A stretch of DNA of 64,000 nucleotides from Pseudomonas sediminis (lineage in GTDB: Bacteria; Pseudomonadota; Gammaproteobacteria; Pseudomonadales; Pseudomonadaceae), in contig NZ_CP154631.1 of the NCBI RefSeq assembly GCF_039555755.1, positions 4,030,001 through 4,094,000 on the forward strand, given 5' to 3'. Below are positions 3,390 through 22,876 of this stretch, piece after piece. The translations under genes were made by a program, and so were the position numbers. Position 1 is the first letter of the stretch, and every line of letters starts with the position of its first letter. The notes under the pieces are model-generated. The model was not told where the DNA came from. It saw only the letters and a list, made by a program, of their open reading frames with translations, and made no database searches.

Positions 3390-4772
3390 TCAGCTGGGAT
3401 GGGGGAGTTCAATGTGAAAGCCCGTGAGGCCAGCCGCTGAAGTACACCAAATGCGGCCTTTGTGAGCCTCGATTATGGATCGGGTGATGGCAAGCCCGAG
3501 CCCGGCATTGCTCGGGCTACCTTCGCGTCGAGCAGGGTCTACCCGGTAAAAGCGGTCGAAGAGTTTCTCTAGATGCTCCGAGCTGATTGTGTTCCCTGGG
3601 TTCTCGATGCTGAAGGTAGTTGAGTCCGCTGTCTGGCGGATCAGAACCGAAATTCTCTTTCCCGCCGGCGTGTAACGCAGCGCATTGGACAGCAAGTTGG
3701 ACAGCGCTCGATCAAGCATCAGCCGATCTCCTAGCACTTGGCCTTTGCCTATGAGCGAAAGTTCAATGCCGCGCTCTTCGGCCAGGAGGTGGTAGTAGTC
3801 AAACAGTTTGAAGATTACGTCAGCCAGTTCGATCCTGGCCTGCTCTGGGATGATCAGGCCATTATCAGCCTTGGCCAGGAACAGCATGTCATCGATCATG
3901 CGAGACATGCGCTTCAATTCCTCCAGGTTCGAGTACAGATTCTCCTCGTAGGCATTGATATCACGCTTCTTGCTCAGCACGACTTCAGTGTGGGTCATCA
4001 GGTTGCTTACGGGCGTGCGCAGCTCGTGTGCGATGTCAGCAGAGAAATTGGAGAGTCGAATGAAGGCCTCTTCAAGTCGGGCCAGCATCGCGTTGAAGGA
4101 CAGTACCAACTGCTGAAGTTCCTGTGGCACTGGTTCTAGAGGGATTCGTTCCTGTAACGAGCGAGCGGACATCCCGGAGGCTACATCAGTGACTTGCCGC
4201 AGGGGCCTAAGACCACTGCGAGCAACCACCCAGCCAAGCGCCGCACTGACCAAGGCACTGATGACCAATCCAATCCAGAACCATCGCTGCAGCGTGTCGA
4301 AAAAGTGCGTGTGATTGGTGACATCGAGAATCAGCAGAGCTGTAAGCGGTTCGGGTTGGTCAGTCACAGAGATTTGAGCCGTCATGCCCCGGTACATGTG
4401 CTCGTCTTTCTGCCACTCCCACATGCTCTGCTCATCGGCACGCCTGAAGCGTCCCGGCACTTCGACTGCTCTGGGGTCGGAAAAGAGCACTGCGCCGTCG
4501 CTGGCCAGGATGGTTGCGGCCAGATCCTGATGCGCCCCCAGTAAGGCTCGCAACTGCGGTAACTCCTCGGAGAGGTTAGCTCCGCTGCGAGCGTTGTTGA
4601 GAATGTGTTTGGCTGATTCGAGTTTTTCCACCAGGGCCTGCCGGTCCAGCATCTTAAAGTGGTGCTGGCTGAGCATGTTGAAGCTCAGCCCCGCTACTGT
4701 CAGGACGGCAATCACCGCGGACATGAACATCAAGCTCATCCGAGCGGTCAGCGAGAGGTGCTTCATATTCAC
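3390..4772 (-). CDS. copS: Copper sensor histidine kinase CopS
   Basis: Inner-membrane sensor kinase of the CusS/CopS heavy-metal group, partner of the adjacent CopR. The 460-residue product shows a first membrane segment (about 10-32), a periplasmic sensor domain, and a second membrane segment near 163-185 ([17 protein letters not shown]). These are followed by a HAMP linker, the phospho-acceptor box [12 protein letters not shown], the N box [10 protein letters not shown] and the G box [12 protein letters not shown]. It starts at GTG 4772, giving a GTGA overlap with the copR stop; ATG 4766 is an alternative. Together with copR it forms a two-gene operon reading away from the island. By family knowledge it responds to periplasmic copper; the ligand is not proven by sequence. 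Confidence 0.9.
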
Positions 4773-5446
4773 TCCGGCGCATCCATCATGTACCCCATGC
4801 CGCGGGCGGTATGGATCAGCTTGAGATCGAAATCGTCATCGATCTTGGCGCGCAGCCGACGTACAGCGACCTCAATGACGTTGGTGTCGCTGTCGAAGTT
4901 CATGTCCCACACCTGCGAAGCAATCAGCGATTTCGGGAGCACTTCGCCGCGCCGGCGCAGTAGCAGTTCCAGCAGTGAAAACTCCTTCGCGGTCAGGTCA
5001 ATTCTTTTCCCGCCACGGATCGCACGCCGCTTCATCAGATCGACTTCCAGATCGGCAATTTTCATGGTGGTCTGCGTCGGCGAACCATTACCTCTGCGCA
5101 ACAGCGTTCTGACCCTGGCCAGAAGCTCTGAGAAAGCAAATGGCTTGATCAGGTAGTCGTCCGCACCCAGCTCCAACCCTTTAACGCGGTCTTCCACACC
5201 ATCGCGTGCCGTCAAGAACAGTACGGGGACGTCTTTTCCTGCTGCGCGCAACATGCGCAGCACTTCCCAACCGTCCAGCCCAGGCATCATTACATCCAGA
5301 ATTAGCAGGTCATAGGCTTCGCTAAGTGCATGCTGAAGGGCATCTGTACCGGTCATAACCCGGTCGACATTGAACCCAGCCTCGGTGAGACCTTGCTGGA
5401 GGTACGTACCGGTTTTGGGTTCGTCTTCAGCTACCAGTAGTTTCAT
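4769..5446 (-). CDS. copR: Copper response regulator CopR
   Basis: OmpR/PhoB-type response regulator that activates copper-resistance promoters. The 225-residue product has a receiver domain with the acidic pocket E7-D8, the phosphorylation site Asp51 ([10 protein letters not shown]) and Lys in YLIKPFAF. The C-terminal winged-helix domain contains [14 protein letters not shown] 5446 is chosen over an in-frame ATG 15 bases upstream because a GGAG motif lies at proper spacing before it and homologues start with MKLL. It is divergent from the small exported gene at 5653, and a CopR-like box lies in the intergenic gap (5511-5525). Seven such boxes in the window indicate its likely targets. Confidence 0.93.
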
Positions 5447-5510
5447 GTGTGCAGACTCCAAAAGTCGGGTGGCCTGAGTTTGCAGGCAAACCGCGGCCCC
5501 AACCAGAAGC

Positions 5511-5564
5511 TTACGAAAATGTAATTCTGACTTCAGCTCACTGACAGGGTGGCTTGTCTAGGGT
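5511..5564 (+). promoter_or_regulatory. CopR-like box and promoter, upstream of 5653
   Basis: TTACGAAAATGTAAT at 5511-5525 matches the other boxes in this window and the imperfect palindrome reported for Pseudomonas CopR (TGACA-N4-TGTNAT). TCA follows at +8, TGACAGG at +17 and a TAGGGT -10 candidate at 5559-5564. This is the same spacing as at 6093, 6793 and 16213. It most likely drives the gene at 5653; it could also influence copRS on the other strand. Confidence 0.75.
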
Positions 5565-6178: not shown

Positions 6179-6736
6179 ATGAAACGCTTACCCCTTAAAC
6201 TGCTGATCAGCACTCTGTTCATCAGCACCACCTTTCCGGCATTTGCCGAGGTCGGCGGCAGTAGCAATGGCATTGGGCAGCAGGCCCAGGCGACGCCAGC
6301 GACTCGCACCATCTTGGTAAAGATGGACGACATCAACTACAGCCAGAAAACGATCGATGTGAAGCCAGGTGAAACCGTGCGCTTCGTTCTGAAGAACGAG
6401 GGCGCGTTGATGCACGAGTTCAACATCGGGCAGGCAGCGTCCCAGCTGGAGCACCAGCGCAAGATGGCGTCCTTGGTCAAGGACGGCACACTGACCCCGA
6501 CCGGCATGGCCGAGCGCATTGTCTGGCATGAGCGTTATGGCACGGGAGACTCCAACCCTCCAGGCTATCCGGAAGTCATCAAAGCCAAGCATGACGACCC
6601 GAACGCGGTTCTCGTCGAGCCCGGCACAACCAAAGAGTTCGTGTGGACCTTCCCTAAGGCGGGCAGTTTGAGCTTCGCCTGTACATTGCCTGGGCATTAC
6701 CAGGCGGGGATGGTCGGTGAGTTTGCTCTGCGTTAG
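6179..6736 (+). CDS. Periplasmic cupredoxin-family protein
   Basis: A 185-residue exported blue-copper-like protein. A signal peptide (about 1-23, ending PAFA) precedes a cupredoxin fold. The type 1 copper ligands can be seen as His in LMHEFNIG and Cys, His and Met in FACTLPGHYQAGM. An insertion of about 60 residues between the strands carries extra His (WHERYG, KHDDPN). It probably binds or shuttles periplasmic copper. It is followed by a paralogue at 6884 with the same fold and its own CopR-type promoter, so the pair arose by duplication. The specific electron-transfer partner, if any, is unknown. Confidence 0.85.
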   Translation: MKRLPLKLLISTLFISTTFPAFAEVGGSSNGIGQQAQATPATRTILVKMDDINYSQKTIDVKPGETVRFVLKNEGALMHEFNIGQAASQLEHQRKMASLVKDGTLTPTGMAERIVWHERYGTGDSNPPGYPEVIKAKHDDPNAVLVEPGTTKEFVWTFPKAGSLSFACTLPGHYQAGMVGEFALR

Positions 6737-6883: not shown

Positions 6884-7417
6884 ATGAAACTCAGACCCGC
6901 TTTCATAATCACCACCCTTGGCTTGCTGCTCAGTGCTGCCAATGCGCTGGCCAGCCCGGGCCACAAGAAAGACAGTATTGGGCAACCGGGAGACGGTCAG
7001 GCAGTAGATCGCACCATCGAAGTCCGGATGGGGGACATCTTCTTCGAACCCAAAGCAATGGAGATCAAAGCAGGCGAGACAGTTCGCTTCGTCCTGAAAA
7101 ATGACGGTGCACTGCTACACGAATTCAATCTTGGCAAAGCGGCATCCCATGCCGCGCACCAGAAAGAGATGGCCGCGATGTTTCAGAACGGCACGCTGTC
7201 CCCTACAGGTGCACATGACATGAGCAATATGGGCCATGCCATGGGCGGCATGAAGATGGTCGGTATGGAACACGATGACCCCAACAGTGTTCTTGTCGAA
7301 CCTGGAGCACGCGAAGAGTTGATCTGGACCTTCTCCGCCGCCACCGAACTGGAGTTCGCCTGCAATATTCCAGGACATTATCAGTCGGGAATGGTCGGTA
7401 AGGTGACCGTACGCTGA
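6884..7417 (+). CDS. Periplasmic cupredoxin-family protein (second copy)
   Basis: A 177-residue paralogue of the protein at 6179. It has a signal peptide (about 1-23, ending ALAS), a cupredoxin fold and ligand residues His in LLHEFNLG and Cys, His, Met in FACNIPGHYQSGM. The variable insertion is Met- and His-rich here (HDMSNMGHAMGGMKMVGMEH), unlike the first copy, which suggests an added Cu(I) or Cu(II) site. It is transcribed from its own CopR-type promoter. The small DUF2933 gene and the P-type ATPase follow within 80 and 335 bases and could be co-transcribed. Confidence 0.86.
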   Translation: MKLRPAFIITTLGLLLSAANALASPGHKKDSIGQPGDGQAVDRTIEVRMGDIFFEPKAMEIKAGETVRFVLKNDGALLHEFNLGKAASHAAHQKEMAAMFQNGTLSPTGAHDMSNMGHAMGGMKMVGMEHDDPNSVLVEPGAREELIWTFSAATELEFACNIPGHYQSGMVGKVTVR

Positions 7418-7496: not shown

Positions 7497-7745
7497 GTGG
7501 ACCATACCCATCACACCAGTACCACTGAGCCGCCTTTTTGGAAGAGCAAGATTGGCATTGCGCTGATCATGCTGGCCGTAATCGGCATCTTCTATGTAGC
7601 GCGTGAGCATTACGGTCATCTTTCGCAGGCCCTGCCGTACCTCATCCTGCTGCTATGCCCGCTGATGCATCTGTTTGGCCACAATCACGGCGGGCACTCC
7701 CACTCCAGCAGCACCGCTGTTTCCAAGGACGAAGAAAGGACATAG
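7497..7745 (+). CDS. DUF2933 small membrane protein
   Basis: An 82-residue protein with one or two membrane segments (about 17-33 and 43-59) and His-rich ends: HTHHTS at the N-terminus and [12 protein letters not shown] near the C-terminus. It resembles DUF2933 proteins that sit beside copper or silver exporters. It begins with GTG at 7497, preceded by CGAGG, and ends five bases before the P-type ATPase start, so the two are likely co-translated. It may hand metal to the ATPase or help its assembly. The molecular function is unknown. Confidence 0.75.
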
Positions 7746-7750
7746 ATCGC

Positions 7751-10114
7751 ATGCAAAAGACCTCCTGCCATCATGACCAGGATCATTCACATAACTCGCA
7801 CGCCCACTCCGAGAGCCAGCGCGACCCGGTGTGTGGCATGGAGGTCAAACCTGATGGCCCTTATCGCGAGAGCTTTGAAGGGAAGGCCTATCATTTCTGC
7901 AGTGCGAAGTGCCTAGAGAAATTCCAAGCAGATCCTCATCAGTACATGAGCCATCAGTCTCATGGGGAGCATCACCAGCACGCGACTCCAGCACCCACAT
8001 CGACACCTGTAGGTGCTGAATACACCTGCCCGATGCATCCAGAAATCCGTCAACCGGCTCCCGGAAACTGCCCGATCTGCGGGATGACGCTGGAACCTGT
8101 CATCCCGGAGCTGGAAGAGGAGGAAAATCCAGAGCTGAAGGACTTCTCGCTGCGGTTCTGGTGGACCCTACCGTTGACCGTCATCGTGACCGTATTGGCG
8201 ATGGCCGGCCATTCCTTGCAACTGTTTCATGGCACGACCCAGAACTGGGTCGAGCTGGCTCTGGCGACGCCCGTGACGCTATGGGGTGGCTGGGTATTCT
8301 TCACCCGCGGCATTGACTCCATCCGCCACCGCAGCCCCAACATGTGGACCCTGATCGGTTTGGGAACGGCCGCTGCCTACCTCTACAGCGTGGCCGCTAC
8401 CTTGGTTCCGCAGTGGTTTCCGGCGGCTTTTGCCCAGGACGGACGTATCGGCGTCTATTTTGAAGCAGCCGCGGTGATTATCTCACTCACGCTGTTGGGC
8501 CAAATGCTCGAACTCAAGGCCCGCTCGCAGACTTCGGCAGCCATCAAGTCACTGCTGAGGCTGGCACCAAAGACTGCGCGTCGCATCAAGCCCGATGGCC
8601 AGGAAGAAGATATTCCGCTGACACATGTCCATCAGGGCGACCACCTACGTGTCCGGCCGGGAGAGAAAGTCCCGGTGGACGGTACGGTTCTAGAGGGGGA
8701 GAGCGCCGTCGACGAGTCGATGCTTACCGGAGAACCGTTACCCGTGACCAAGCGGGTAGGGGATGCCCTTATCGGTGCCACCCTGAACACCCACGGCAGC
8801 CTGGTGATGGAGGCGCAGAAGGTCGGTGCCGAGACCATGCTGTCGCAGATCGTTCAGATGGTGGCCAGAGCCCAACGTTCCAAGGCCCCCATGCAGCGTA
8901 TGGCTGATGCGGTGGCAGGGTATTTCGTGGTCGGGGTGATCCTGATCGCGATTCTGACCTTCTTCGGCTGGGGGCTATTAGGGCCGGAATCAGGCTGGGT
9001 ATTTGGCCTGATCAATGCGGTGGCGGTGCTAATCATTGCGTGTCCCTGCGCTCTGGGTCTGGCAACCCCGATGTCCGTCATGGTTGCGACTGGCAAGGCC
9101 GCTAGCAGCGGTGTGTTGTTCCGCGATGCCAGCGCCATCGAAAATCTATGCAAGATCGACACGCTCATCGTCGACAAGACTGGAACCCTGACTGAGGGGC
9201 GTCCCGTATTTCATAGTGCGGAAGGGACAGGCGGTTACGACTCCAATGAAGTGCTGCGCCTGGCTGCTAGTCTCGACCAGGGTAGTGAGCACCCGCTGGC
9301 TCATGCCATCGTCGATCATGCGCGCGGTCAGGGCATTGCACTGGTCAAACCGGACACTTTCGAATCTGGCTCGGGTATTGGTGTGCGCGGCCAGGTCGAT
9401 GACCATCAGCTGCAGCTCGGCAACACAGCACTGATGGACGAGGCGGGCGTCGATATTACCCCGCTGCGCAATCGCGCCGAGCAACTGCGTCTGGAAGGCA
9501 TCAGCATCATCTATTTGGCCGTTGATGGTCGCCTGGCGGGACTCCTGGCCGTTTCCGATCCGATCAAGCCTACCTCTCAACAGGCTGTCTCCAAGCTTCA
9601 AAGCGAAGACGTAAAGGTCATCATGGCCACTGGTGATGGCCTCACCACAGCAAGAGCCGTGGCGAAGCAGCTCGGAATCGAGGAAGTGCATGGTGAGGTC
9701 AAACCGCAGGATAAGGAGAAACTGGTCGCCGATTTGCAGGGCTATGGCCGTCGTGTCGCCATGGCGGGTGACGGCATCAACGATGCGCCCGCCCTGGCCA
9801 GGTCTGACGTAGGTATCGCCATGGGCACCGGTACCGATGTGGCGATGAACAGCGCCCAAGTGACGCTGGTCAAGGGAGATCTGATGGGCATCCTGCGAGC
9901 GCGCACCCTGTCAGTGGCAACCGTGAAAAACATGAGGCAGAACCTCGCCTTTGCGTTCCTCTACAACGCGATGGGAATCCCGCTAGCAGCGGGGCTGCTG
10001 TACCCGCTGACGGGGCATCTTCTGTCGCCCTTGATTGCTGCGCTGGCGATGAGTGTCAGCTCGGCGTCGGTGGTCTTCAATGCTCTGAGGTTGAAATCAA
10101 CGGACATCGGATAG
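7751..10114 (+). CDS. Copper-translocating P-type ATPase, YHS/HMBD type
   Basis: A P1B-type ATPase of 787 residues that pumps Cu(I), possibly Ag(I), out of the cytoplasm. The N-terminus is His-rich and is followed by a YHS domain (DPVCGMEV and [12 protein letters not shown]). Next is a heavy-metal-binding domain (YTCPMHPEI and [10 protein letters not shown]), instead of the usual CXXC HMA domain. Core motifs are LTGEPLPV, the metal-site CPC in [13 protein letters not shown], the phosphorylated Asp in DKTGTL, SEHPLA and [10 protein letters not shown]. The start at 7751 follows an AAGGA site; an upstream in-frame start would overlap the DUF2933 gene. The architecture matches SilP/CopF-like ATPases. 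The gene is complete. Confidence 0.93.
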
Positions 10115-10287: not shown

Positions 10288-12015
10288 GTGGCCCGCATTC
10301 GCAGACTGATTATCAGCAACTTCCGATCTATCCAGGCGCTCGACTGGGTGCCGGCCCCAGGAATTAACTGCCTCATAGGTCCTGGCGATAGTGGAAAGTC
10401 CAGCATTCTAGATGCGATTGACCTTTGCGTCGGTGCCCGCCGGGGCGGCACGTTCGGCGACATGGACTTCTTCGCTCTGAACGTCGAAACACCCATCACC
10501 ATCAGTGTGACGCTTGGCGATTTGCCGGTATCGCTGATGGATATCGATGTTTACGGCGAGTTCTTGCGTGGATTCAATCCAGGAACGGGAGAAGTCGAAG
10601 ACGAACCGCGAGCGGGGCTGGAGACCGTTATCACCTTGCTCCTGCAAGTTGGTGCCGATTTGGAACCTACCTGGACACTTTTTTCTGAGCGTGCGGAGCA
10701 GCAGCAACTCGAACGCACTCTTCCCTGGAAGGAACGAGCGGCACTAGCACCCGCCCGTATCGGCAGCTTTGCGAGTTCGAACTTGTCGTGGAGTCGTGGC
10801 TCAGTGCTCAATCGACTTACCGATGAGCGCGCCGAGCTTGGTGCTGAACTGGCGCGCGCCGCTAGGCAAGCAAGAGCGAACTTTGGCAATCAAGCAGCCG
10901 AACATCTGACCCAGACGCTTGAGGTCGTGCAACGCACAGCACAGCATCTTGGCGTTTCGGTCGGGGCTATGCCTCAGGCGCTCCTTGACGCACATTCTGT
11001 GTCGATTGGCGAGGGGGCGATCGCGCTGCACAGTGAAACAGGTATTCCGCTGCGCTCCCTTGGCACGGGCTCGTCACGCTTGCTAGTGGCAGGGCTTCAA
11101 AGGGCTGCGGCCAGCGCCGCGCCAATTGCCCTGGTTGATGAGGTGGAATACGGGCTTGAACCTCATCGGCTCATGCGATTCCTGGACTCGCTGGGTGCAA
11201 AGGACGCTGCCGCTCCGTTGCAAGTGTTCATGACGACGCACTCGCCGGTCGCGCTGCGCGAGCTGTCCGGCAGCCAGTTATTCGTTGTTCGGTCAGCACC
11301 TCAGCGCCACAGTGTTATGCCAGCTGGGGAAGCCAACGAGGTACAAAGTACCCTTCGGAAGGACCCCGAAGCATTCCTCGCCAAATCCATCATCGTTTGC
11401 GAGGGGGCCAGCGAGGTTGGCTTCGCGCGTGGCCTTGACCAATGGTGGGTCAGTCTTGGCGCTACCTCATTCCTGGCCCATGGCGGCGCGTATGTGGACG
11501 CCGGCGGGGGAAGCCCCGATAACAGTCTTATCCGGGGAACAGCACTTCTGAACTTGGGTTACCGCGTGATGGTTTTTGTAGATGCCGACAAGCCTTCGAC
11601 CGCGGGGCTCGCTGAAGCATTCTTGGCCGCCGGCGGGCAAATTCTTACATGGCGACCAGGCCTCACGTTGGAGGACGAGATCTTCCGCCATCTCAGAGAG
11701 CAAGCACTCGATGCACTTCTGGCGAAAGCCGAAACAATAGTGGGTGCAGAGCTGATGAACGCACACATTCAGACGAAGTCCCAAGGCCGCGTGACGCTGA
11801 ACGATATCCGAGCCAAGCGACTCGTGGATGGGTACTCACCTGAGAGACGAGAGCTGCTGGGAACCGCATCCCGTATCCGCAACAGCGGCTGGTTCAAGTC
11901 GCTGACAACCTATCAGGAGGTTGCAAGGGACATCGTCGGTCCGTCTTTACAGAACGCCGAACCGGGCTTCATGGCAGTCACGAATCAGCTCTGGACGTTT
12001 ACAAGTGCCCCCTGA
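10288..12015 (+). CDS. gajA: OLD-family ATPase/TOPRIM nuclease, Gabija GajA-like
   Basis: A 575-residue protein with an ABC-type ATPase domain followed by a TOPRIM nuclease domain. Walker A is GPGDSGKSS near residue 31. The signature-like region is RSLGTGSSRLLVAG, Walker B is LVDEVEYGLEP and the H loop is FMTTHSPVAL. The TOPRIM domain shows the conserved Glu in IIVCEGASEVGF and a DxD in VMVFVDADKPS. Start is GTG 10288 after a GAGGA site. Length, domain order and the overlapping UvrD-like helicase downstream match the Gabija anti-phage system (GajA about 580 residues, cutting DNA when nucleotide is depleted). An orphan class 2 OLD nuclease is the alternative. Confidence 0.82.
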   Translation: MARIRRLIISNFRSIQALDWVPAPGINCLIGPGDSGKSSILDAIDLCVGARRGGTFGDMDFFALNVETPITISVTLGDLPVSLMDIDVYGEFLRGFNPGTGEVEDEPRAGLETVITLLLQVGADLEPTWTLFSERAEQQQLERTLPWKERAALAPARIGSFASSNLSWSRGSVLNRLTDERAELGAELARAARQARANFGNQAAEHLTQTLEVVQRTAQHLGVSVGAMPQALLDAHSVSIGEGAIALHSETGIPLRSLGTGSSRLLVAGLQRAAASAAPIALVDEVEYGLEPHRLMRFLDSLGAKDAAAPLQVFMTTHSPVALRELSGSQLFVVRSAPQRHSVMPAGEANEVQSTLRKDPEAFLAKSIIVCEGASEVGFARGLDQWWVSLGATSFLAHGGAYVDAGGGSPDNSLIRGTALLNLGYRVMVFVDADKPSTAGLAEAFLAAGGQILTWRPGLTLEDEIFRHLREQALDALLAKAETIVGAELMNAHIQTKSQGRVTLNDIRAKRLVDGYSPERRELLGTASRIRNSGWFKSLTTYQEVARDIVGPSLQNAEPGFMAVTNQLWTFTSAP

Positions 12016-13433
12016 GATTGATCTTTTCGCTATCGAGCGTGGCTCCATAACGGCCCCCGCAGGTTGTGGAAAAACGCAATTGATTGCCGAGACGCTCATC
12101 GCGCATACGCAGAGCAAACCCATCCTCGTCTTGACACATACGAACGCCGGCGTTGCGGCCTTACGGGCGCGCCTGAGACGAGCCGGTGTTCCTAACTCCG
12201 CATATCGAGTCTCCACCATTGACGGATTCTCGATGCGCCTGATCGCTAAGTTCCCAGCGCGAAGCGGCCATAACCCGCAGATCCTACAGCTGCATCAACC
12301 CAATACTGACTACCCGGCAATTCGGGAGGCCGCCATGCAGTTGTTGCAGGCCGGTCACCTCGCTCAGCCCCTTCGCGCCACCTATGCACGGTTGCTTGTC
12401 GACGAGTACCAAGACTGCAACGTCGTCCAGCACGCCATCGTGTCTGGTTTGGCCCAGGTGCTTCCGACCTGCGTGCTCGGTGACCCGATGCAAGCCATAT
12501 TCAGCTTCCGTGGCAATCGACTGGTGCATTGGGCGAATGAGGTGCAACCCCTGTTTCCCGCAGCGGGAGAGTTGAGGATACCGTGGCGCTGGCGGCTGGC
12601 TGGAGCTGAGAACCTCGGGCAGTGGCTGCTCGCCATAAGGCAACAACTTCAAGCTGGTCAGCCGGTGGATCTGCGCACGGCTCCAGCAGAAGTGCGTTGG
12701 GTGCAGCTAAACGCCGGAACCGAAGTTCAGCAGCGACTGGTGGCCGCGAGAACCGAAGCTCCCAACGCTCAGGGTAGCGTCCTCATCATCGGGGACTCCA
12801 TCAACGTGCAAGGTCGCCATCAGCTCACGAGCCAGACACCCGGTGCCATGGCCGTAGAAGCCGTCGACCTGAGAGATCTCGTCAACTTCGCCAGGAACTT
12901 TGACTTGCAGGGTGCCAATGCTCTGGCACAACTTGTGGAGTTTGCTTCCAGCGTAATGACGGGGGGTAGGTGCAGCAAACCTGCGAACGCGCGTGGAGTC
13001 GCTGCGTGCAGGAAGGGCCCGAACGCCTCCGACCGCGGCCGAGGCTGCGGCGATCGATTTCGTAGCAGCGCCAACATTGGGGCAAGCGCTCCGTGTGATC
13101 GATACGCTCGCTGAGCAGCACGGGGCACGTGTATACCGACCGGAGGCTCTGTACTGCTGCCGGTCTGCAATGCAAGCGGTGGTGGGAGGTGCTACCGACT
13201 TTCTGAGTGCAGCCATTCAAGCGCGAGAGCGCAATAGACACCTTGCCCGACCGATCGCAAGACGCTCTGTAGGCAGCACATTACTTCTCAAGGGGCTGGA
13301 GGCGGATGTCTCGGTTGTTCTGCATCCTGAGCTTATGACCCCCCAGAATCTATACGTCGCACTGACGAGGGGCGCAAGGCATGTCGTGGTGTGTTCACCA
13401 ACCCCCATCCTTACGCCCGTGGTAAACGGCTGA
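12005..13433 (+). pseudogene. gajB: UvrD-like helicase, Gabija GajB-like, frameshifted
   Basis: Superfamily 1 helicase split over two frames. The first frame (from GTG 12005, overlapping the nuclease stop by 11 bp) holds motif I APAGCGKTQLI, Ia LTHTNAGV, II LLVDEYQDCN, III GDPMQAIFSFRGN and IV WRWRL. The second frame (to 13433) holds motif V LLLKGLEAD and motif VI NLYVALTRGAR. Deleting one G from the G6 run at 12961-12966 restores an uninterrupted reading through MTGVGAANLRTRVESLR, giving about 475 residues, close to GajB. As written, the protein ends at 13114 without motifs V and VI. It may be a real mutation, a phase-variable tract or a sequencing error. Confidence 0.8.
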
Positions 13434-13530: not shown

Positions 13531-13731
13531 ATGTTTAGTCTGAGTGTTGCGGGGATGGGCTGTGGCAGTTGCGTGAGCAAAATCACGAAGGCCATTCAAG
13601 CTCTGGATCAGGATGCACGAGTAGAAGTGGATCGAGCGGCCGGCAAGGTCACCGTTGAGAGCACAGAAAGTGCCGAATCGATCCGCGAACTCATCCAGGA
13701 GCTTGGCTATTCGGCCCAGGTCAGCGCTTGA
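13531..13731 (+). CDS. copZ: Copper chaperone CopZ (HMA domain)
   Basis: A 66-residue single-domain heavy-metal-associated protein that carries Cu(I) in the cytoplasm to the P-type ATPase or to a CueR-type regulator. The metal site is GMGCGSC near residues 9-15, with the usual beta-alpha-beta-beta-alpha-beta pattern. ATG 13531 follows a GAGGTG site; an upstream in-frame start adds 25 unlikely residues and would include the -10 region of the promoter. It stands alone behind a MerR-type promoter and is convergent with the MNIO operon. The ATPase it would serve is now separated from it by the 3-kb anti-phage module. Confidence 0.9.
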   Translation: MFSLSVAGMGCGSCVSKITKAIQALDQDARVEVDRAAGKVTVESTESAESIRELIQELGYSAQVSA

Positions 13732-13750: not shown

Positions 13751-14065
13751 CTAAATCTCCAGTTCTGAGAGCTCTTTTAGCCCTGGGATACTGGTGACCT
13801 CGTTGGTCATACCTTCTGAACCATCTCGGCCGCGAAGCCAGTTTGAGTGATCGCCTGGCTCGCGCATTTCCAGCGTGTCATAGGAGTACCGCTTGCGCTT
13901 GAACAGGCTTTTCAATGCAGCGAACTCGTGGCTTTTTTCGTCTTCTATGCCGACGACTTCTCCTGCAAGCCGCTCCCAGTGACCAACGCCGTCGGCCAGC
14001 ATTGCCTGATAGGTCTCCGGGTCAAGCAAGGCTTGCTGTTTGAAATGCATGATGCGGTGAGTCAT
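13751..14065 (-). CDS. Hypothetical protein, last gene of the MNIO operon
   Basis: A 104-residue soluble protein that I do not recognise. It starts MTHRIMHFKQQALL, contains KSHEFAALKSLFKRKRYSYDTLEM and has no signal peptide, membrane segment or cysteine. An upstream TTG start at 14086 would add seven residues. It is the last gene of the minus-strand operon, 50 bp after the DUF2063 gene, so it may take part in maturing or handling the modified peptide. It could also be an unrelated passenger. No function is assigned. Confidence 0.6.
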   Translation of the reverse strand: MTHRIMHFKQQALLDPETYQAMLADGVGHWERLAGEVVGIEDEKSHEFAALKSLFKRKRYSYDTLEMREPGDHSNWLRGRDGSEGMTNEVTSIPGLKELSELEI

Positions 14066-14115
14066 AGAAGCGCTCGGAGTGGCCAAAGAGAGAGCGCTAG
14101 CCTAAAGGTTCCGGG

Positions 14116-14910
14116 TCATTCGTGTAATAGCTGGCCGCGCTTTAGCAAACCGTCGTTGACCCACAACTTCAACCAGGTCGCGGCTTGCAAGGGAGCTTGC
14201 TCGCCATGCGTGGCGCTCAACGACTCGCAGAGTTCAGCGAACGATCCGCCCTCGATGAGAAACTGCAATGCCGAAGCCTCCGCTGGCTCCAGGCTCCGGT
14301 ACTGGCAGACGAGTTCATGACGCCAAACAAGACAGGCTAGGTTCGTTGGCAGGCGGGTAATATCAGGCAGCAAGCTGCCGGACTTGGCGGCTTTCCACAA
14401 CTCCAGCGTGTTGTACTGCAGCTGCAACCACCGAGCAGATGCAGTCAGGGAAACCCTGAGTGAAATCCAGTCTTCAGCCGAAAAATCACTCATGGTCTCC
14501 AGCGAAAGCGCTTCGACATCCTGAGCGTCGAAGGCCAGTGTAAAGGCCCATTCCAGTTCCGCGAGTTCGCGCATCGGCGATAGTTGGGGTTCTTCGACGT
14601 AGCTGCTAATGAACTCGGGCAGCTTCTCGCCCAGCCAGCGAATGCTGAAATGTCGTGGTGGCCAGGCGGCCAAGTAGGCCAGTGCGAGCTGCTCGAATGA
14701 TTCGTTGCCGATCCAGTGAAGCAGGGCAGGGAAGTCTTCTCGCAAGACCGCAAGCAGGCGCGAACGGTAAGCGTTGTGGTAGATCTGCAGGCCTTCGAGA
14801 GCACTCAGCGCTGTGCTACCTCGGATCTGCTCCAAAAGCTCGTTGGAGGGCAGGGCACTGTCACCTGTCAGGTAAGTTTCAAATGCAGTCTGTAGGGCGA
14901 TCAGGCTCAA
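14116..14910 (-). CDS. bufC: DUF2063 partner protein of the MNIO enzyme (BufC-like)
   Basis: A 264-residue protein of the DUF2063 (putative DNA-binding domain) family. Members are the usual partners of DUF692 enzymes, as in MbnC of methanobactin loci and BufC of bufferin loci. The N-terminal part shows the family pattern LQIYHNAYRSRLLAVLREDFPALLHWIG and WPPRHFSIRWLGEKLP. It presumably binds the precursor leader and presents it to the oxygenase. Its ATG overlaps the stop of the DUF692 gene by 4 bp, which implies tight coupling and a stoichiometric complex. It is cytoplasmic, with no signal. The assignment rests on family pattern plus operon order. Confidence 0.85.
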   Translation of the reverse strand: MSLIALQTAFETYLTGDSALPSNELLEQIRGSTALSALEGLQIYHNAYRSRLLAVLREDFPALLHWIGNESFEQLALAYLAAWPPRHFSIRWLGEKLPEFISSYVEEPQLSPMRELAELEWAFTLAFDAQDVEALSLETMSDFSAEDWISLRVSLTASARWLQLQYNTLELWKAAKSGSLLPDITRLPTNLACLVWRHELVCQYRSLEPAEASALQFLIEGGSFAELCESLSATHGEQAPLQAATWLKLWVNDGLLKRGQLLHE

Positions 14911-15743
14911 GGGGTGGCCCCCGATATCACAGATTTGGCGATAGCACGGGCATGTGCTAATTCGGACAACAGCTCTTCCAGCGGCGGAAACTGGTCATCC
15001 CGCTCGATCAAGGTCGATGTCGGGCCCAAGTAGCTCAAAGTCTTGCTGTAGAGAGACCAAACCGGATCAGCGATGGGCTGGTCATGGGTGTCGATGAGGT
15101 ACTGCCCGTAATCGCTGTGCCCGGCCAGGTGAATTTGCCGAATCCGCTCGTGCGGCAATTCCATGATGAACTGCCAAGGGTCGAAACCCTGGTTGCGCGA
15201 ACTGACGTAGACGTTGTTCACGTCGAGAAGCAGCTCGCACCCGGTCAGGTAACTGAGCTCCGAGAGGAACTGAGACTCGCTCATGCTGGATGTTGTCCAC
15301 TGCACGTAGGAGGAAACGTTCTCCAGCACGATGGGACGTTCCAAAACATCCTGCACCAAGCGCACCCGGGCCGCGACATGCAGCAGGCTCTCCTGGGTAA
15401 ACGGCAGCGGTAGCAGATCGTGAAGTTGATGGGCGTTGCCTCGACTCCAGCACAGGTGATCAGACACCCACTGAGGCTGCACCCGATCCGCCAGCTGCTT
15501 GAGCTGTCGTAGGTAGTCTATGTCCAAGGCATGTGAGCCGCCAATCGAAAGAGATACTCCGTGCATCACCAGGGGGTAGTGCTCGCCGATCGCATCAAGG
15601 AAGTAGAGAGCCTTGCCGCCCTCCACCAGGTAATTCTCGGAAATGATCTCGAACCAGTCGACCGCAGGCCGTTCCTCCAGGATCTGCCGGTAATACTCGT
15701 TACGAAGGCCAAGACCGAAACCCAGAGTTTTGCGCTTACTCAT
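14907..15743 (-). CDS. bufB: DUF692 multinuclear iron oxygenase (MNIO), BufB-like
   Basis: A 278-residue TIM-barrel enzyme of the DUF692/UPF0276 family. These enzymes use two or three iron ions to modify cysteines in ribosomal peptides, as MbnB and BufB do. Typical motifs are GLGLRNEYYRQI, WFEIISENYLVEGG, VMHGVSLSIGG, VSDHLCWS, LENVSSY, ELLLDVNNVYVSSRN and IHLAGH; they supply the His, Asp, Glu and Asn metal ligands. ATG 15743 is preferred because GGAG lies six bases before it; an in-frame GTG at 15773 would add ten residues. It lies between the Cys-rich precursor and the DUF2063 partner, so the three form a complete RiPP pathway. Confidence 0.9.
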   Translation of the reverse strand: MSKRKTLGFGLGLRNEYYRQILEERPAVDWFEIISENYLVEGGKALYFLDAIGEHYPLVMHGVSLSIGGSHALDIDYLRQLKQLADRVQPQWVSDHLCWSRGNAHQLHDLLPLPFTQESLLHVAARVRLVQDVLERPIVLENVSSYVQWTTSSMSESQFLSELSYLTGCELLLDVNNVYVSSRNQGFDPWQFIMELPHERIRQIHLAGHSDYGQYLIDTHDQPIADPVWSLYSKTLSYLGPTSTLIERDDQFPPLEELLSELAHARAIAKSVISGATP

Positions 15744-15787
15744 TCGAGACTCCAGCAGGGGAGTGGCATGCACTCCCCTGAACCGCC

Positions 15788-16048
15788 TTATTCGCTGGTT
15801 TTGCCACCGGCTTCGTCACATTTGGTCTGGGTCATCAACTTGAACCCTTGGCCTTTGCATTCGCCTTGGCCTTTGCAGTCGTTTTTCGCGGTCATGCAGT
15901 CGTTCTGCCCTTTGCAACCATTGATCCCGAAGCACTTCACTTCTGCTGCTTTGGTTTCCTGAGCAGCCTGGACGGGCAGGGTGGAGAACAGGCTGGCGGC
16001 CACCAGAGCCAAGGCTGCACCGGTAGCTACGTTGGATTTGTTCGACAT
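15788..16048 (-). CDS. bufA2: Bufferin-type copper-binding RiPP precursor (BufA2-like)
   Basis: An 86-residue precursor with a long signal peptide (about 1-29, ending PVQA). The Cys-rich mature part has six cysteines at 39, 45, 51, 58, 64 and 77 in repeating contexts: KCFGINGCKG, NDCMTA, NDCKGQ, GECKGQG and TKCDEAGG. This matches BufA2-type periplasmic metallophores, whose cysteines are converted by a DUF692 enzyme to heterocycles that bind copper. It heads a minus-strand operon with bufB and bufC and shares a 283-bp divergent promoter region with the gene at 16332. A CopR-like box at 16213 lies in that region. The chemical modification is inferred from the family, not visible in the DNA. Confidence 0.85.
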   Translation of the reverse strand: MSNKSNVATGAALALVAASLFSTLPVQAAQETKAAEVKCFGINGCKGQNDCMTAKNDCKGQGECKGQGFKLMTQTKCDEAGGKTSE

Positions 16049-16212
16049 AGTGGCTATCTCTCTTGATTGTTTGATGGTCGCGATCCGTCGGTGCGAATGA
16101 ACGAGTTAGCTCAGGCATTGCTACCGATCAGGCCCATGGAATCCGCAAGGCTGCGCGGGCAGGAAGACAGTACCGAGCCTTCAGGAGGGCCTACAAGAAA
16201 GAAATAGCAAAC

Positions 16213-16266
16213 TGACAGAACTGTAATGTTCGGATCAGGTTGCTGACAGGGCGTCGTGGTTAACGT
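16213..16266 (+). promoter_or_regulatory. CopR-like box and promoter in the bufA2/16332 divergent region
   Basis: TGACAGAACTGTAAT at 16213-16227 is the closest of the boxes to the published CopR palindrome. TCA follows at +8, TGACAGG at +17 and TAACGT at 16261-16266. The polarity and spacing point to the gene at 16332; the box also lies 165 bp upstream of bufA2 on the other strand and might serve both. Confidence 0.78.
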
Positions 16267-16331
16267 AGCAGCGAGCTTAACGCTCGTCCCCACTAGTTAC
16301 AGGGGCTTCTAAACTTCTGAGGATTAACGAA

Positions 16332-16538
16332 ATGAAATCGATCAAAACCCTGTTTGTAGTTGCTGCCCTGAGTGTTTCCAGCCTGGCGATGGCCGAAGGC
16401 GGTGCTGATCGCACGTTTGCACGCATGGAGCAGGCACGCCAGACGTCTCTGGAGGCCTACCGGGTGGCCCAGCAGCAGAAAGTTGAGGCTCCTGTAGCCA
16501 GCAGTCCAACCGAGCAAGCAGAGCACACCAACTGCTGA
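16332..16538 (+). CDS. PtrA-like small exported protein
   Basis: A 68-residue exported peptide. A signal peptide (about 1-21, ending LAMA) is followed by EGGADRTFARMEQARQTSLE, the conserved N-terminus of the copper-induced PtrA family. The tail ends in HTNC, with a single Cys. PtrA is known in P. aeruginosa as a copper-inducible protein reported to affect the type III regulator ExsA, although its periplasmic signal suggests a copper-related role. It lies directly behind the best CopR-like promoter of the window and upstream of copA. Paralogous N-termini occur at 5653 and 22877. Confidence 0.78.
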   Translation: MKSIKTLFVVAALSVSSLAMAEGGADRTFARMEQARQTSLEAYRVAQQQKVEAPVASSPTEQAEHTNC

Positions 16539-16549
16539 AGTCATCTACC

Positions 16550-16564
16550 TTACAGAAATGTAAT
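16550..16564 (+). promoter_or_regulatory. CopR-like box upstream of copA
   Basis: TTACAGAAATGTAAT, a 15-bp dyad, lies 168 bp before copA and 11 bp after the small gene at 16332. The conserved TCA and TGACAG at fixed spacing are not seen here, so the promoter behind it is weaker or arranged differently. Confidence 0.72.
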
Positions 16565-16732: not shown

Positions 16733-18526
16733 ATGCAAAGCAAAACCACAAGGCGCACCTTCGTCAAAGGCCTGGCAGCCACCGGTATTATCGGCGGACT
16801 TGGCCTGTGGCGCACGCCGGTCTGGGCGGTGAACAGCCCCGGCCAGCCCAACGTACTGACTGGTAACGAATTCGACCTATTCATCGGTGAAACCCCGGTG
16901 AACATCACCGGCGCAGCGCGCACGGCCATGACCATCAACGGCTCGCTCCCTGGGCCGATTCTTCGTTGGCGCGAAGGCGATACCGTCACATTGCGCGTGC
17001 GCAACCGCCTCAAGGAGGACACCTCCATCCATTGGCACGGCATCATCCTGCCGGCGAACATGGATGGTGTTCCTGGCCTGAGCTTCCATGGCATCGCCCC
17101 TGATGGCATGTATGAGTACAAGTTCAAGGTCAACCAGAACGGCACCTACTGGTATCACAGCCATTCTGGGCTCCAGGAGCAGGTCGGCGTATACGGTGCG
17201 CTGGTCATCGATGCCAAGGAGCCCGAGCCCTTCAGTTACGACCGTGATTACGTCGTGTTGCTGAGCGACTGGACGGATGAAAATCCAACGCGGGTACTGG
17301 CCAAGCTCAAGAAACAGTCGGACTACTACAACCAACACAAACGCACCGTTGGTGACTTCATCGATGACGTAAGCGAGATGGGTTGGTCCGCCGCCGTAGC
17401 CGACCGTAAGATGTGGGCCGAAATGAAGATGAGCCCGACTGATCTCGCCGACGTCAGTGGCTACACCTACACCTACCTGATGAACGGCCAGGCACCTGAT
17501 GGCAACTGGACCGGCATATTCAAACCAGGCGAAAAGATCCGCCTGCGGTTCATTAATGCCTCGGCTATGACCTATTTCGATGTGCGCATCCCAGGCCTGA
17601 AGATGACTGTGGTTGCGGCCGATGGTCTGCACGTCAAACCGGTCAGCGTCGACGAGTTCCGTATCGCCGTGGCCGAGACCTACGACGTGATCATCGAACC
17701 AGACAGCGAACAGGCCTATACCGTGTTTGCCCAATCCATGGACCGCACTGGCTATGCGCGCGGCACCCTTGCGGTACAGGAAGGGTTGAGTGCACCGGTA
17801 CCAAGCCCTGACCCGCGCCCACTGATTGCCATGGGTGACATGGGCATGGACCACGGCAGCATGGGCGGCATGGATCATGGGAGCATGCAGGGTGGCATGG
17901 CCGGCATGGATCACAGCCAGATGGCGGGAATGGATCATTCGGGCATGGCAGGCATGGCAGGCATGGCAGGCATGGCAGGCATGGCAGGCATGGCAGGTGC
18001 CATGCAGGCACACCCAGCCTCAGAGACCAACAACCCGCTGGTCGATATGCAAACCATGACACCAACGCATAAGTTGGACGACCCAGGTATTGGTTTGCGA
18101 GACAACGGCCGACGCGTCCTCACGTACTCTGACCTGCGCAGCACCTTCCCTGATCCGGACGGGCGTGAGCCAAGTCGCACCATCGAGCTGCACCTCACCG
18201 GGCATATGGAGAAATTCTCCTGGTCCTTCGATGGAATCAAGTTCTCTGACGCCGAGCCTCTGCGCCTCAAGTACGGCGAGCGTGTTCGCATCACGCTGGT
18301 CAACGACACCATGATGACTCACCCGATCCATCTTCATGGCATGTGGAGTGATCTGGAGGATGCGAACGGCAATTTCTTGGTGCGTAAACACACCATCGAC
18401 ATGCCGCCAGGTTCCAAGCGCAGCTATCGGGTGACCGCCGATGCGTTGGGGCGTTGGGCCTATCACTGCCACCTGTTGCTCCACATGGAAACGGGCATGT
18501 TCCGTGAAGTCCGTGTGGATGAGTAA
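16733..18526 (+). CDS. copA: Periplasmic multicopper oxidase CopA
   Basis: A 597-residue multicopper oxidase of the PcoA/CopA family, which oxidises Cu(I) and binds copper in the periplasm. A Tat signal (TTRRTFVKGLAATG) precedes three cupredoxin domains. Copper-site motifs are HWHG and WYHSHS in the first domain and HPIHLHG and HCHLLLHMETGM in the last. Between about residues 365 and 425 lies a Met-rich segment with MDHGSM, MDHSQM and a run of six GMA units, which presumably binds extra copper. The chosen ATG at 16733 directly precedes the Tat motif. It heads an operon with the small Met/His-rich gene, copB, the cytochrome and copG. Confidence 0.95.
   Translation: MQSKTTRRTFVKGLAATGIIGGLGLWRTPVWAVNSPGQPNVLTGNEFDLFIGETPVNITGAARTAMTINGSLPGPILRWREGDTVTLRVRNRLKEDTSIHWHGIILPANMDGVPGLSFHGIAPDGMYEYKFKVNQNGTYWYHSHSGLQEQVGVYGALVIDAKEPEPFSYDRDYVVLLSDWTDENPTRVLAKLKKQSDYYNQHKRTVGDFIDDVSEMGWSAAVADRKMWAEMKMSPTDLADVSGYTYTYLMNGQAPDGNWTGIFKPGEKIRLRFINASAMTYFDVRIPGLKMTVVAADGLHVKPVSVDEFRIAVAETYDVIIEPDSEQAYTVFAQSMDRTGYARGTLAVQEGLSAPVPSPDPRPLIAMGDMGMDHGSMGGMDHGSMQGGMAGMDHSQMAGMDHSGMAGMAGMAGMAGMAGMAGAMQAHPASETNNPLVDMQTMTPTHKLDDPGIGLRDNGRRVLTYSDLRSTFPDPDGREPSRTIELHLTGHMEKFSWSFDGIKFSDAEPLRLKYGERVRITLVNDTMMTHPIHLHGMWSDLEDANGNFLVRKHTIDMPPGSKRSYRVTADALGRWAYHCHLLLHMETGMFREVRVDE
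17942..17995 (+). repeat. Six tandem 9-bp repeats inside copA
   Basis: GGCATGGCA is repeated six times without interruption and encodes Gly-Met-Ala units. The units are multiples of three bases, so slippage changes the number of Met residues without breaking the frame. Confidence 0.92.
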
Positions 18527-18538
18527 AGGAGATTTCTG

Positions 18539-18850
18539 ATGAGTACTTTTATGAAGCGTAATGCCCTGTTTGGCAGCGCAGCGATGTTCAGTCTTTTGGC
18601 TGTTCTGCACGCGCCGACGTCATTTGCAGGTGAGGGGCACAGCGAGCACGAACAACATGCTGCCGAGTCGGCTGCGCCCGACGCCAGTGACAAGCCTGCA
18701 GATCAATCGAAAGGCAAGGCCGCTGGCCATCAGATGGATCATGGCGCCATGGATCATGAGGGTATGAACCATGACGATATGGGGCACGAGAAGATGATGG
18801 ATAAGCATGGCGGCACCGAAGCCGAAGCAGGTTCGAACCATGACCACTAG
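18539..18850 (+). CDS. Small Met/His-rich exported protein between copA and copB
   Basis: A 103-residue protein with a signal peptide (about 1-30, ending TSFA). Its acidic, Met/His-rich mature part has the repeats [22 protein letters not shown], which resemble the copper-binding repeats of CopA and CopB. ATG 18539 follows an AAAGGAG site 12 bp after the copA stop, and its end overlaps the copB start by 11 bp. It probably acts as a periplasmic copper sponge or passes copper between CopA and CopB. I do not know a firm family name for it. Confidence 0.75.
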
Positions 18851-19931
18851 GTTTTCACGCCCGTCCCTCATAGCGCTGGCCGTGTCGCTGAGTGCACTCA
18901 GCGGCGGCGTTACTTTGGCTGCGGAAGAAATGGATCATTCGGCAATGGGGCACGGCACCATGTCGATGGACCATAGCCAGATGAGCCACGGCGCTACCAA
19001 AGCGCCGATGGAGGGCATGGATCACAGCAAGATGGACCATGGTGCCATGCAGGGTGCTTCGGGCAGCATGGATCATAGCCAGATGGGCCACGGCCAGAGC
19101 CAAGAGAAGGCCCAGGCTATGGATCACAGCAAGATGGGGCATGGCGCCATGCAAGGACAGATGGAGGGCATGGATCATTCAAAGATGAACCATGGCTCCG
19201 CTGAAGCCCCGAGAACCACCAGCCGTACGCCGATTCCCGTTCTGACGGATGCTGATCGCCAAGCGGCTTTCCCGCCATTACCTGGCCACAAGGTTCACGA
19301 CAGCGCCATCAACAGTTTTTTCCTGCTCGATCAGCTCGAATACCAGGACGCAGATGAGGGCAGCACCCTGGCCTGGGATGCGTCGGGCTGGGTAGGCGGT
19401 GATATCAACCGGGTCTGGTTCCGCTCCGAAGGCGAGCGTACCAACGGCGTGACCGAGGATGCTGAATTACAGCTGCTGTACGGCCGCTCGATCGGCCCTT
19501 GGTGGGATGTCGTCGCGGGCGTTCGCCAGGACTTCAAACCGGAGTCGCCGCAGACTTGGGCCGCCTTCGGTATCCAGGGCATGGCGCTTTACGCCTTTGA
19601 GGCCGAAGCCACGGCCTTCGTCGGCGAGAATGGCCAAACTGCTGCCCGACTGGAGGGCGAGTACGACATTCTGCTGACCAACCGGCTGATTCTCCAGCCA
19701 ACTGCCGAAATGAACTTCTACGGCAAGAACGATCCTGAGCGAGGTGTGGGGTCTGGGTTGGCAAATACCGAGCTCGGCTTGCGTCTGCGTTACGAGATTG
19801 TCAGGCAGTTTGCCCCCTATATCGGGGTTTCCTGGAGCCGCTCCTATGGCAACACGGCGGACATGGTGCGCGACGAGGGCGGTGATGTAGACGAGGCGCG
19901 TTTTGTCGCCGGTATCCGGATGTGGTTTTAA
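18840..19931 (+). CDS. copB: Outer-membrane copper resistance protein CopB
   Basis: A 363-residue CopB/PcoB protein. After a signal peptide (about 1-27) comes a Met/His-rich region with at least eight MDHSKM- or MDHSQM-like units (about 30-120). A beta-barrel domain follows ([48 protein letters not shown]) and ends in a terminal Phe (RMWF), as outer-membrane barrels do. The start at 18840 gives an 11-bp overlap with the preceding gene; an upstream frame extension has no signal. It is thought to bind copper or let it cross the outer membrane together with CopA. The gene is intact. Confidence 0.92.
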
Positions 19932-22845: not shown

Positions 22846-22860
22846 ATTACATTTCAGTCA
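22846..22860 (-). promoter_or_regulatory. CopR-like box upstream of the OprD-type porin
   Basis: Read on the minus strand the site is TGACTGAAATGTAAT, with TCA at the conserved +8 position. TGACAG at +17 is absent. It lies 127 bp before the porin start. Confidence 0.68.
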
Positions 22861-22876
22861 GCGCGATGTCATTTAT

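What the first reader, a model, noticed from the sequence alone, without database searches (positions are those of the whole stretch)
13751..16331. A complete bufferin-type MNIO RiPP operon within a copper island
A Cys-rich, Sec-exported precursor (six cysteines in repeating CKGQ-like contexts), a DUF692 iron oxygenase and a DUF2063 partner lie in order, with 4-bp coupling between the last two. Their promoter region holds the best CopR-like box of the window. This suggests a copper-induced, modified periplasmic copper-binding peptide working with CopA/CopB. The six-Cys precursor and the extra small downstream gene (13751-14065) may define a variant.
Basis: partly seen in the sequence, partly recalled or inferred. 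Interest (0 to 1): 0.82.

Follow-up and report, generated by a model that had tools for sequence, protein, structure and literature searches.

The report
Copper-island bufferin operon, CopR-box promoter
A copper-resistance island in Pseudomonas carries a complete set of genes for a bufferin, a known kind of modified copper-binding peptide, and its promoter region holds a copper-regulator site where many relatives have a sigma-factor-type site.

Summary
The finding is real and its main reading holds: window 14116-16048 (minus strand) is a complete bufA2-bufB-bufC operon. BufA2 and BufB pass NCBI's curated equivalog cut-offs; BufC is a DUF2063 protein. It lies in a copper island (CopRS, two cupredoxins, Cu-ATPase, CopZ, PtrA, CopA, CopB). 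Six cysteines are the family norm (31 of 31 distinct precursors), not a variant.

Two differences are real. (1) The bufA-ptrA gap holds the genome's only exact CopR-consensus site, present in 18 of 18 island copies compared, absent within 2 mismatches from 32 of 32 non-island bufA2 upstreams (31 distinct). Those often carry an ECF-type motif, TGTAACG-N16-CTCTA: at least 72 of 98 non-island places against 0 of 16 island places. Genome-wide the motif is hardly commoner than its backward control (161 against 139); the evidence is its position. (2) The third cysteine is Cys-Met where most relatives have Cys-Lys.

The fourth gene is linked to this island's bufABC (26 of 26 named loci) but is no bufferin core gene; its role is unknown. 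CopR binding, peptide modification and copper binding were not tested.

The parts
15788..16048 (-). bufA2: precursor peptide, 86 aa, Sec-type signal sequence (by eye), six Cys
   Evidence: NF050166 Cu_RiPP_BufA2 92.3 bits, cut-off 60
14907..15743 (-). bufB: MNIO (DUF692) maturase, 278 aa; ERDD motif of the Cys-Lys subgroup
   Evidence: NF050167 MNIO_BufB 374.6 bits, cut-off 310; PF05114 369.5 bits; aligned with 3BWW over residues 8-212 and 215-262
14116..14910 (-). bufC: DUF2063 partner protein, TTG start overlapping the bufB stop by 4 bp
   Evidence: PF09836 72.3 bits, cut-off 27.2; HvfC model 30.5 bits, below its cut-off of 142
13751..14065 (-). ORF4: 104-aa conserved protein of unknown function, 50 bp downstream of bufC
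   Evidence: no Pfam, NCBIfam or PADLOC match; next to bufABC in 26 of 26 named loci; dN/dS 0.14 and 0.13 in the two of four pairs with measurable dS
16212..16227 (.). CopR-type box CTGACAGAACTGTAAT
   Evidence: only exact consensus match in the genome; exact in 18 of 18 compared island copies
16191..16249 (.). strongly conserved block around the CopR box, between bufA and ptrA
   Evidence: alignment of eight distinct 260-bp island upstreams
16332..16538 (+). ptrA: PtrA-like protein, divergent from bufA
   Evidence: NF041599 83.5 bits, cut-off 31
16549..16564 (.). second CopR-type box (one mismatch) upstream of copA
16733..18526 (+). copA: copper-resistance multicopper oxidase
   Evidence: TIGR01480 993.7 bits, cut-off 478.95
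18807..19931 (+). copB: copper-resistance protein B
   Evidence: PF05275 309.9 bits, cut-off 27
13531..13731 (+). copZ-like heavy-metal-associated domain protein, convergent with ORF4
   Evidence: PF00403 62 bits, cut-off 24.8; CopZ models only below their cut-offs
7655..10114 (+). copper-translocating P-type ATPase
   Evidence: TIGR01511 598.4 bits, cut-off 397
6884..7417 (+). cupredoxin, CopI-like
   Evidence: NF051440 241.2 bits, below its cut-off of 280
6179..6736 (+). cupredoxin, CopI-like
   Evidence: NF051440 203.5 bits, below its cut-off of 280
4769..5461 (-). CopR-type heavy-metal response regulator of the island
   Evidence: TIGR01387 340.9 bits, cut-off 279.2
3390..4772 (-). CopS-type heavy-metal sensor kinase of the island
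   Evidence: TIGR01386 482.7 bits, cut-off 292.55

Best explanation
A BufA2-type bufferin operon on a mobile Pseudomonas copper island. BufB with its partner BufC oxidises cysteines of the BufA2 precursor in the cytoplasm, most likely to 5-thiooxazoles at the Cys-Lys sites C2, C4 and C5; the modified peptide is exported by Sec and binds excess copper in the periplasm, beside PtrA, CopA and CopB. Transcription is most likely switched on by the island's own CopRS through the box at 16212-16227, instead of by the ECF-sigma-type promoter that appears upstream of many other bufferin operons in the family. Shown here: gene identities, gene order, catalytic motifs, the exact box and its conservation, and the absence of the exact ECF-type motif from the island copies compared. 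Inferred: CopR binding and induction, the ECF nature of the other motif, the modification, export, copper binding, and the direction of the promoter exchange.
For: BufA2 and BufB equivalog matches above curated cut-offs; PF05114 and DUF2063. BufB keeps conserved MNIO segments of 3BWW (EN, HG-SLS, SDHL, EN, LDVNN, IH-AGH, DTH, ERD) and has Asp where 3BWW has Phe (ERDD), the reported mark of Cys-Lys MNIOs (PMC13097082 section 14). Copper-island neighbours. Exact CopR site, unique in the genome, in 18 of 18 compared island copies and in 0 of 32 non-island bufA2 upstreams (31 distinct) within 2 mismatches; 26 of 26 named island loci hold an exact site (partly the same strains). TGTAACG-N16-CTCTA in 28 of 31 distinct non-island 350-bp upstreams, 0 of 9 distinct island upstreams, 0 of 9,300 single-base shuffles; at least 72 of 98 against 0 of 16 places. 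Purifying selection: dN/dS about 0.03 for BufA and 0.06 for BufB. In print: bufferins chelate copper in the periplasm and help growth under copper stress (PMC12452194).
Against: No expression, binding or mass data. The box lies in a divergent gap and may serve ptrA mainly: in the named locus L099 it lies far from bufA, on the ptrA side, although in L054 and L089 it stays with bufA while ptrA is moved away, and in L053 it stays with bufA where no ptrA follows. The sigma-70 scan found no promoter in the region. BufC scores below the HvfC cut-off. The chemistry of Buf2 bufferins was not yet identified in the 2025 survey. Up to 26 of 98 non-island places lack the exact ECF-type motif, and genome-wide that motif is hardly commoner than its backward control (161 against 139), so its meaning rests on position alone. 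Island copies are close relatives, not independent events.
Confidence: 0.8

Rival explanations
1. The operon is a bufferin operon, but the CopR box belongs to ptrA; bufABC is expressed from another, constitutive or differently controlled promoter.
For: Divergent gap of 283 bp with one exact box; in L099 the box lies on the ptrA side, about 3 kb from bufA.
Against: In L054 and L089 the box stays on the bufA side while ptrA is moved away; in L053 the box stays though no ptrA follows; the conserved block reaches to the bufA side of the box. That such sites often serve both sides is general knowledge.
Confidence: 0.2
2. The island peptide is exported largely unmodified and binds copper through free thiols.
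For: C1, C3 and C6 have no following Lys; no modification data exist for this clade.
Against: bufB and bufC are matched in 26 of 26 named island loci (coverage 1.00, but 0.92 of bufC in L098 and L099; reading frames not checked one by one), with dN/dS about 0.06 for BufB; [quoted passage not shown]
Confidence: 0.05
3. ORF4 is a dedicated fourth bufferin gene (maturation, export or handling of the peptide).
For: Adjacent and co-oriented, linked in 26 of 26 named loci, dN/dS 0.13-0.14.
Against: 79 of 95 genomes with BufA2 over the cut-off have no strong ORF4 match; distant homologues lie beside restriction-type genes (L070, L071) and conjugation-type genes (L072), named by eye; its start is 50 bp from bufC; its frame is broken in G179.
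Confidence: 0.2
4. ORF4 is a passenger or mobile-element gene without a role in the bufferin.
For: Contexts of its distant homologues; in 369 genomes of the class only the own copy and one very weak match were found, in 398 of the family 20 matches.
Against: Purifying selection and linkage to this island.
Confidence: 0.6

Closest known systems
BufA2/Buf2 bufferins (Buf_6/12Cys; PMC12452194)
   Same: bufABC gene order, Sec-type precursor with six Cys, MNIO plus DUF2063 partner, copper context
   Different: exact CopR box where many family members have an ECF-type motif; third core site Cys-Met; an extra conserved gene; mobile island location
GI-7 copper islet of Pseudomonas aeruginosa (PMC5695207, PMC8872213; passages)
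   Same: two cupredoxins, copper ATPase, CopZ, CopA, CopB, UvrD helicase and endonuclease are listed for it; the same kinds of genes lie here
   Different: the passages I read name no DUF692, bufferin or MNIO genes; the GI-7 sequence was not compared, so whether it carries bufABC is inference
ECF-controlled DUF692-DUF2063 operons of Caulobacter (sigma-F, PMC3511200) and Sinorhizobium (RpoE7, PMC6180224); passages
   Same: bufferin-type gene sets; -35 element with GTAAC
   Different: sigma-F uses GTAACC-N16-CGAA; the island upstreams have no TGTAACG-N16-CTCTA (at least 4 mismatches) and have a CopR box
Captophorins of the Lys-Cys type (fontiphorin, oxazolin, gonophorin; PMC13097082)
   Same: MNIO with a DUF2063 partner, Cys-rich precursor
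   Different: EGKCG repeats and Phe after the catalytic Asp; here Cys-Lys sites and Asp
GIG operon of Legionella and Cupriavidus (PMC5413113; passages)
   Same: DUF692-DUF2063 operon; copper- and gold-responsive promoter in Legionella
   Different: DUF2282 (Buf1) precursor and a DoxX gene; here a BufA2 precursor and no DoxX among the four genes

Membership tests
BufA2/Buf2 bufferin operon | precursor matches the BufA2 model above its cut-off | tested here: met
   92.3 bits against 60
BufA2/Buf2 bufferin operon | six (or twelve) conserved Cys in the precursor | tested here: met
   six Cys in 5 of 5 distinct island and 26 of 26 distinct other precursors
BufA2/Buf2 bufferin operon | Sec signal sequence | tested here: inconclusive
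   the N-terminus has the form by eye and the BufA2 model covers residues 11-84; no signal-peptide predictor was available
BufA2/Buf2 bufferin operon | MNIO maturase of the BufB type | tested here: met
   374.6 bits against 310; conserved segments aligned with 3BWW
BufA2/Buf2 bufferin operon | gene order ABC | tested here: met
[quoted passage not shown]
   DUF2063 met (72.3 bits); the C-terminal part is covered only by an HvfC match under its cut-off (30.5 against 142 bits); no PDB sequence match at E 0.1
BufA2/Buf2 bufferin operon | Cys-derived modification and copper binding | not testable with these tools
   needs mass spectrometry and copper-binding assays
Cys-Lys captophorin MNIO | Asp at the position of FonB Phe250 | tested here: met
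   window ERDD against ERDF in 3BWW; ERDD in 21 of 21 distinct island hits and 22 of 31 distinct other hits, the other 9 not matching the search expression
CopR regulon | CopR consensus CTGACAn5GTAAT upstream | tested here: met
   exact, unique in the genome
CopR regulon | copper- and CopR-dependent expression | not testable with these tools
   needs a reporter fusion
ECF-type bufferin promoter | TGTAACG-N16-CTCTA upstream of bufA | tested here: not met
   4 or 5 mismatches at best in 19 island rows, 18 distinct copies, 350 bp each; 0 of 16 island places
Lys-Cys (EGKCG) captophorins | EGKCG repeats in the precursor | tested here: not met
   sequence
Buf1 (DUF2282) bufferins | PF10048 match, four Cys | tested here: not met
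   no PF10048 match for the precursor up to E 0.1 and none in the own genome; six Cys. Against this: the database's precomputed domains list PF10048 for many BufA2 relatives
GI-7 islet | same sequence and gene set | tested here: inconclusive
   kinds of genes agree with the published list (passage); the GI-7 sequence was not compared

The most novel reading that the evidence does not exclude
The island bufferin is a self-contained mobile module that left the ECF-sigma regulon of chromosomal bufA1 and bufA2 and joined the island's CopRS regulon, so that it works in hosts without that regulon; and its third core site, Cys-Met, is left as a thiol/thioether copper(I) site, giving a peptide with three thiooxazoles plus a sulfur pair rather than four thiooxazoles.
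Probability: 0.25. Interest if true: 0.6.

Novelty: new variant of a known kind. Interest (0 to 1): 0.45.

Why it matters
A copper island with the kinds of genes listed for GI-7, whose copper resistance is credited in the passages I read to CopA, CopB and transporters, also encodes a bufferin; part of its copper protection may come from a modified peptide. The contrast between an ECF-type motif on many non-island bufferin operons and a CopR box on the mobile copy makes it testable how a metallophore is rewired when it becomes mobile, and the Cys-Met site is a natural test of what the residue after Cys does in MNIO chemistry.

Tried and rejected

Limits of the ECF-type motif. In 398 genomes it occurs 161 times in 114 genomes, its backward control 139 times in 116 genomes (summed), so number alone shows nothing. 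The one search list was cut at 150 places; of these 64 precede a BufA2 place, 33 a DUF2282 place and 53 neither. For DUF2282 I copied only the 33 rows that I saw to lie near a site; the many other listed rows were not copied, so 33 is a numerator without a denominator. Eight more BufA2 places with the motif come (checked): 72 of 98. Of the 53, the G079 site precedes a BufA1-like gene and operon, and the G071 site precedes DUF692-, DUF2063- and DoxX-like genes in the same order (by eye), the DUF2282 rows of both being outside the cut list; the rest were not looked at, apart from one G020 site of other spacing that showed no such operon. Own genome: no exact motif; with one mismatch 8 hits against 21 of the control. 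with looser spacing gave one own-genome hit against one of the control. The Fisher tests (0 of 16 against 64 of 98, p 3.8e-7; against 72 of 98, p 1.3e-8) ignore relatedness.

Papers. PMC12452194: abstract, sections 4, 13, 14, 21 and passages. PMC13097082: sections 7, 14 and passages. PMC11195947: outline with abstract, and passages. PMC12538549, PMC8872213, PMC5695207, PMC12847981, PMC5413113, PMC3511200, PMC6180224: passages only. The founding bufferin paper (PNAS 2024) is not held and was not read. That GI-7 papers name no bufferin genes rests on passages. Searches for a published link of bufferins with CopR or with Pseudomonas islands, or for the TGTAAC motif, gave no such report by title or abstract in their listings; the listed papers were not all opened.
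Full report
What is there. bufA (15788-16048) codes for 86 residues; bufB (14907-15743) and bufC (14116-14910) overlap by 4 bp (TTGA); ORF4 (13751-14065) follows after 50 bp. BufA reaches 92.3 bits against NCBI's BufA2 model (cut-off 60), BufB 374.6 against the BufB model (cut-off 310), BufC 72.3 against DUF2063 (cut-off 27.2). BufC scores only 30.5 against the HvfC model (cut-off 142), so its C-terminal domain is only weakly placed. The genome has one MNIO gene, this one.

Surroundings. The neighbours are a CopRS pair, two CopI-like cupredoxins (below the curated cut-off), a copper P-type ATPase, a CopZ-like protein, PtrA, CopA and CopB. A published table for the GI-7 copper islet of P. aeruginosa lists two cupredoxins, a copper ATPase, CopZ, CopA, CopB, UvrD helicase and an endonuclease (PMC5695207, passage), the same kinds of genes. 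Related copies lie on six Pseudomonas plasmids at 86.3-86.7% identity and in 26 named contigs labelled Pseudomonas, Halopseudomonas or Atopomonas. The window's genome is near P. mendocina: the genome labelled same species (G334) has a contig of 37,826 bp, the length of the P. mendocina FFL34 contig (inference).

The enzyme. BufB aligns with the solved MNIO 3BWW and keeps its conserved segments (that they hold the iron ligands is general knowledge of the family). After ERD it has Asp where 3BWW has Phe. PMC13097082 (section 14 read) reports this exchange for MNIOs that act on Cys-Lys sites. ERDD was found in 21 of 21 distinct island hits and 22 of 31 distinct other hits; the remaining 9 did not match the search expression and were not examined further.

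The precursor. All 31 distinct precursors compared have six Cys (5 island, 26 other), as do about 90% of Buf2 precursors in print (PMC12452194 section 14). The island clade differs in context: C1 is KCFG in 5 of 5 island sequences and HCYG in 24 of 26 others; C3 is DCMT in 5 of 5 and DCKT in 24 of 26. Of 201 homologues found in a wider search, 120 are listed and 115 could be parsed: C3 is Cys-Lys in 94, Cys-Met in 17, other in 4; 14 of the 17 Cys-Met cases are among the 19 top-ranked. If the Lys matters for modification, the island peptide has three favoured sites, not four; this is inference.

The promoter. The CopR consensus CTGACAn5GTAAT is quoted in PMC11195947 (passage). The site at 16212-16227 fits it exactly, is the only exact match in the window and in the genome, and is exact in all 18 distinct island copies whose upstream I had (19 rows, window and L001 being one copy) and somewhere in each of the 26 named loci (partly the same strains; in L099 on the ptrA side). 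Among 32 non-island bufA2 upstreams of 350 bp (31 distinct) none has a match within 2 mismatches. A block of about 60 bp around the box is conserved between island types that differ elsewhere.

What the others have instead. Of 31 distinct non-island upstreams, 28 carry TGTAACG-N16-CTCTA with the same spacing, 74-93 bp before the start codon that I chose; 0 of 9,300 single-base shuffles and 0 of 9 distinct island upstreams do. In 398 Pseudomonadaceae genomes the motif occurs 161 times in 114 genomes, but its backward control 139 times in 116, so the total count is no evidence; the position is. Of the 150 places listed, 64 lie 77-97 bp before a BufA2 match, at least 33 lie 158-167 bp before a DUF2282 (BufA1) match, and 53 before neither in the rows I had. 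Of the 114 BufA2 places over the cut-off that I copied, 0 of 16 island and 64 of 98 non-island places have it in the cut list, 72 of 98 with eight more seen. Caulobacter sigma-F controls two DUF2282-DUF692-DUF2063 gene sets, with the binding sequence GTAACC-N16-CGAA (PMC3511200, passages), and Sinorhizobium RpoE7 a DUF692-DUF2063 operon whose promoter holds TGTAAC (PMC6180224, passage). The motif is therefore probably an ECF-sigma promoter, and the island copy has a CopR site in its place. The host genome has no exact motif.

ORF4. In 398 genomes 20 have a match, 16 of them strong; all 16 are among the 95 genomes with BufA2 over the cut-off, and the 15 fetched regions show it next to bufABC. 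All 26 named loci have bufA, bufB and bufC matches beside it. Two weaker homologues (47% and 46%) lie beside restriction-type genes and a third among conjugation-type genes, named by eye; the fourth (G249) was not looked at. dN/dS is 0.14 and 0.13 in the two of four pairs with measurable dS; the frame is broken in G179. It is a conserved gene of this island with no known role.

How it most likely works. Copper in the periplasm activates CopS and CopR; CopR induces bufABC, ptrA and copAB; BufB and BufC modify BufA2; the peptide goes out through Sec and buffers copper. Gene content and sites are shown; each functional step is inferred from relatives.

Verdict. A true bufferin operon of a known class, with a variant promoter region and one variant core site; the six-Cys argument falls and the fourth gene stays unexplained.

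Noticed in passing
window 10288-12015 and 11921-13430 (+): A Gabija-type defence pair sits inside the copper island: GajA 790 bits; GajB is split over two overlapping open frames (643.8 and 165.2 bits) in this genome. GajA is matched in 18 of 26 named island loci, some of which are cut by the locus end.
   Followed up: partly
L057, L058, L062: Beside copZ, where other islands have the Gabija genes, these three carry a MerR-type regulator, a heavy-metal P-type ATPase and a porin-like gene (named by eye), so the slot is variable.
   Followed up: partly
L053, L054 (plasmids), L089, L099: The bufA-ptrA gap is interrupted in some copies: an ISPa41 element upstream of bufA in L053 (no ptrA follows) and L054, box on the bufA side; in L089 a longer gap with the box near bufA; in L099 a longer gap with the box near ptrA.
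   Followed up: partly
L057, L062, L063: DNA identity to the window falls along the operon (copZ and ORF4 100%, bufC 98-99%, bufB 90-96%, bufA 87%), which suggests recombination inside it.
   Followed up: no
398 Pseudomonadaceae genomes; for example L119, L120, L122: TGTAACG-N16-CTCTA precedes both bufA1-type and bufA2 operons at unlinked places in the same genomes, which points to a shared ECF-sigma regulon; the sigma gene was not identified, and total counts do not exceed the backward control by much.
   Followed up: partly
window 22846-22861 (-) and 5510-5525 (+): Further CopR-like sites with one and two mismatches, near the start of the porin-like gene at 21394-22719 and of copR; 18 sites within two mismatches in the window against a shuffle mean of 9.15.
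   Followed up: no
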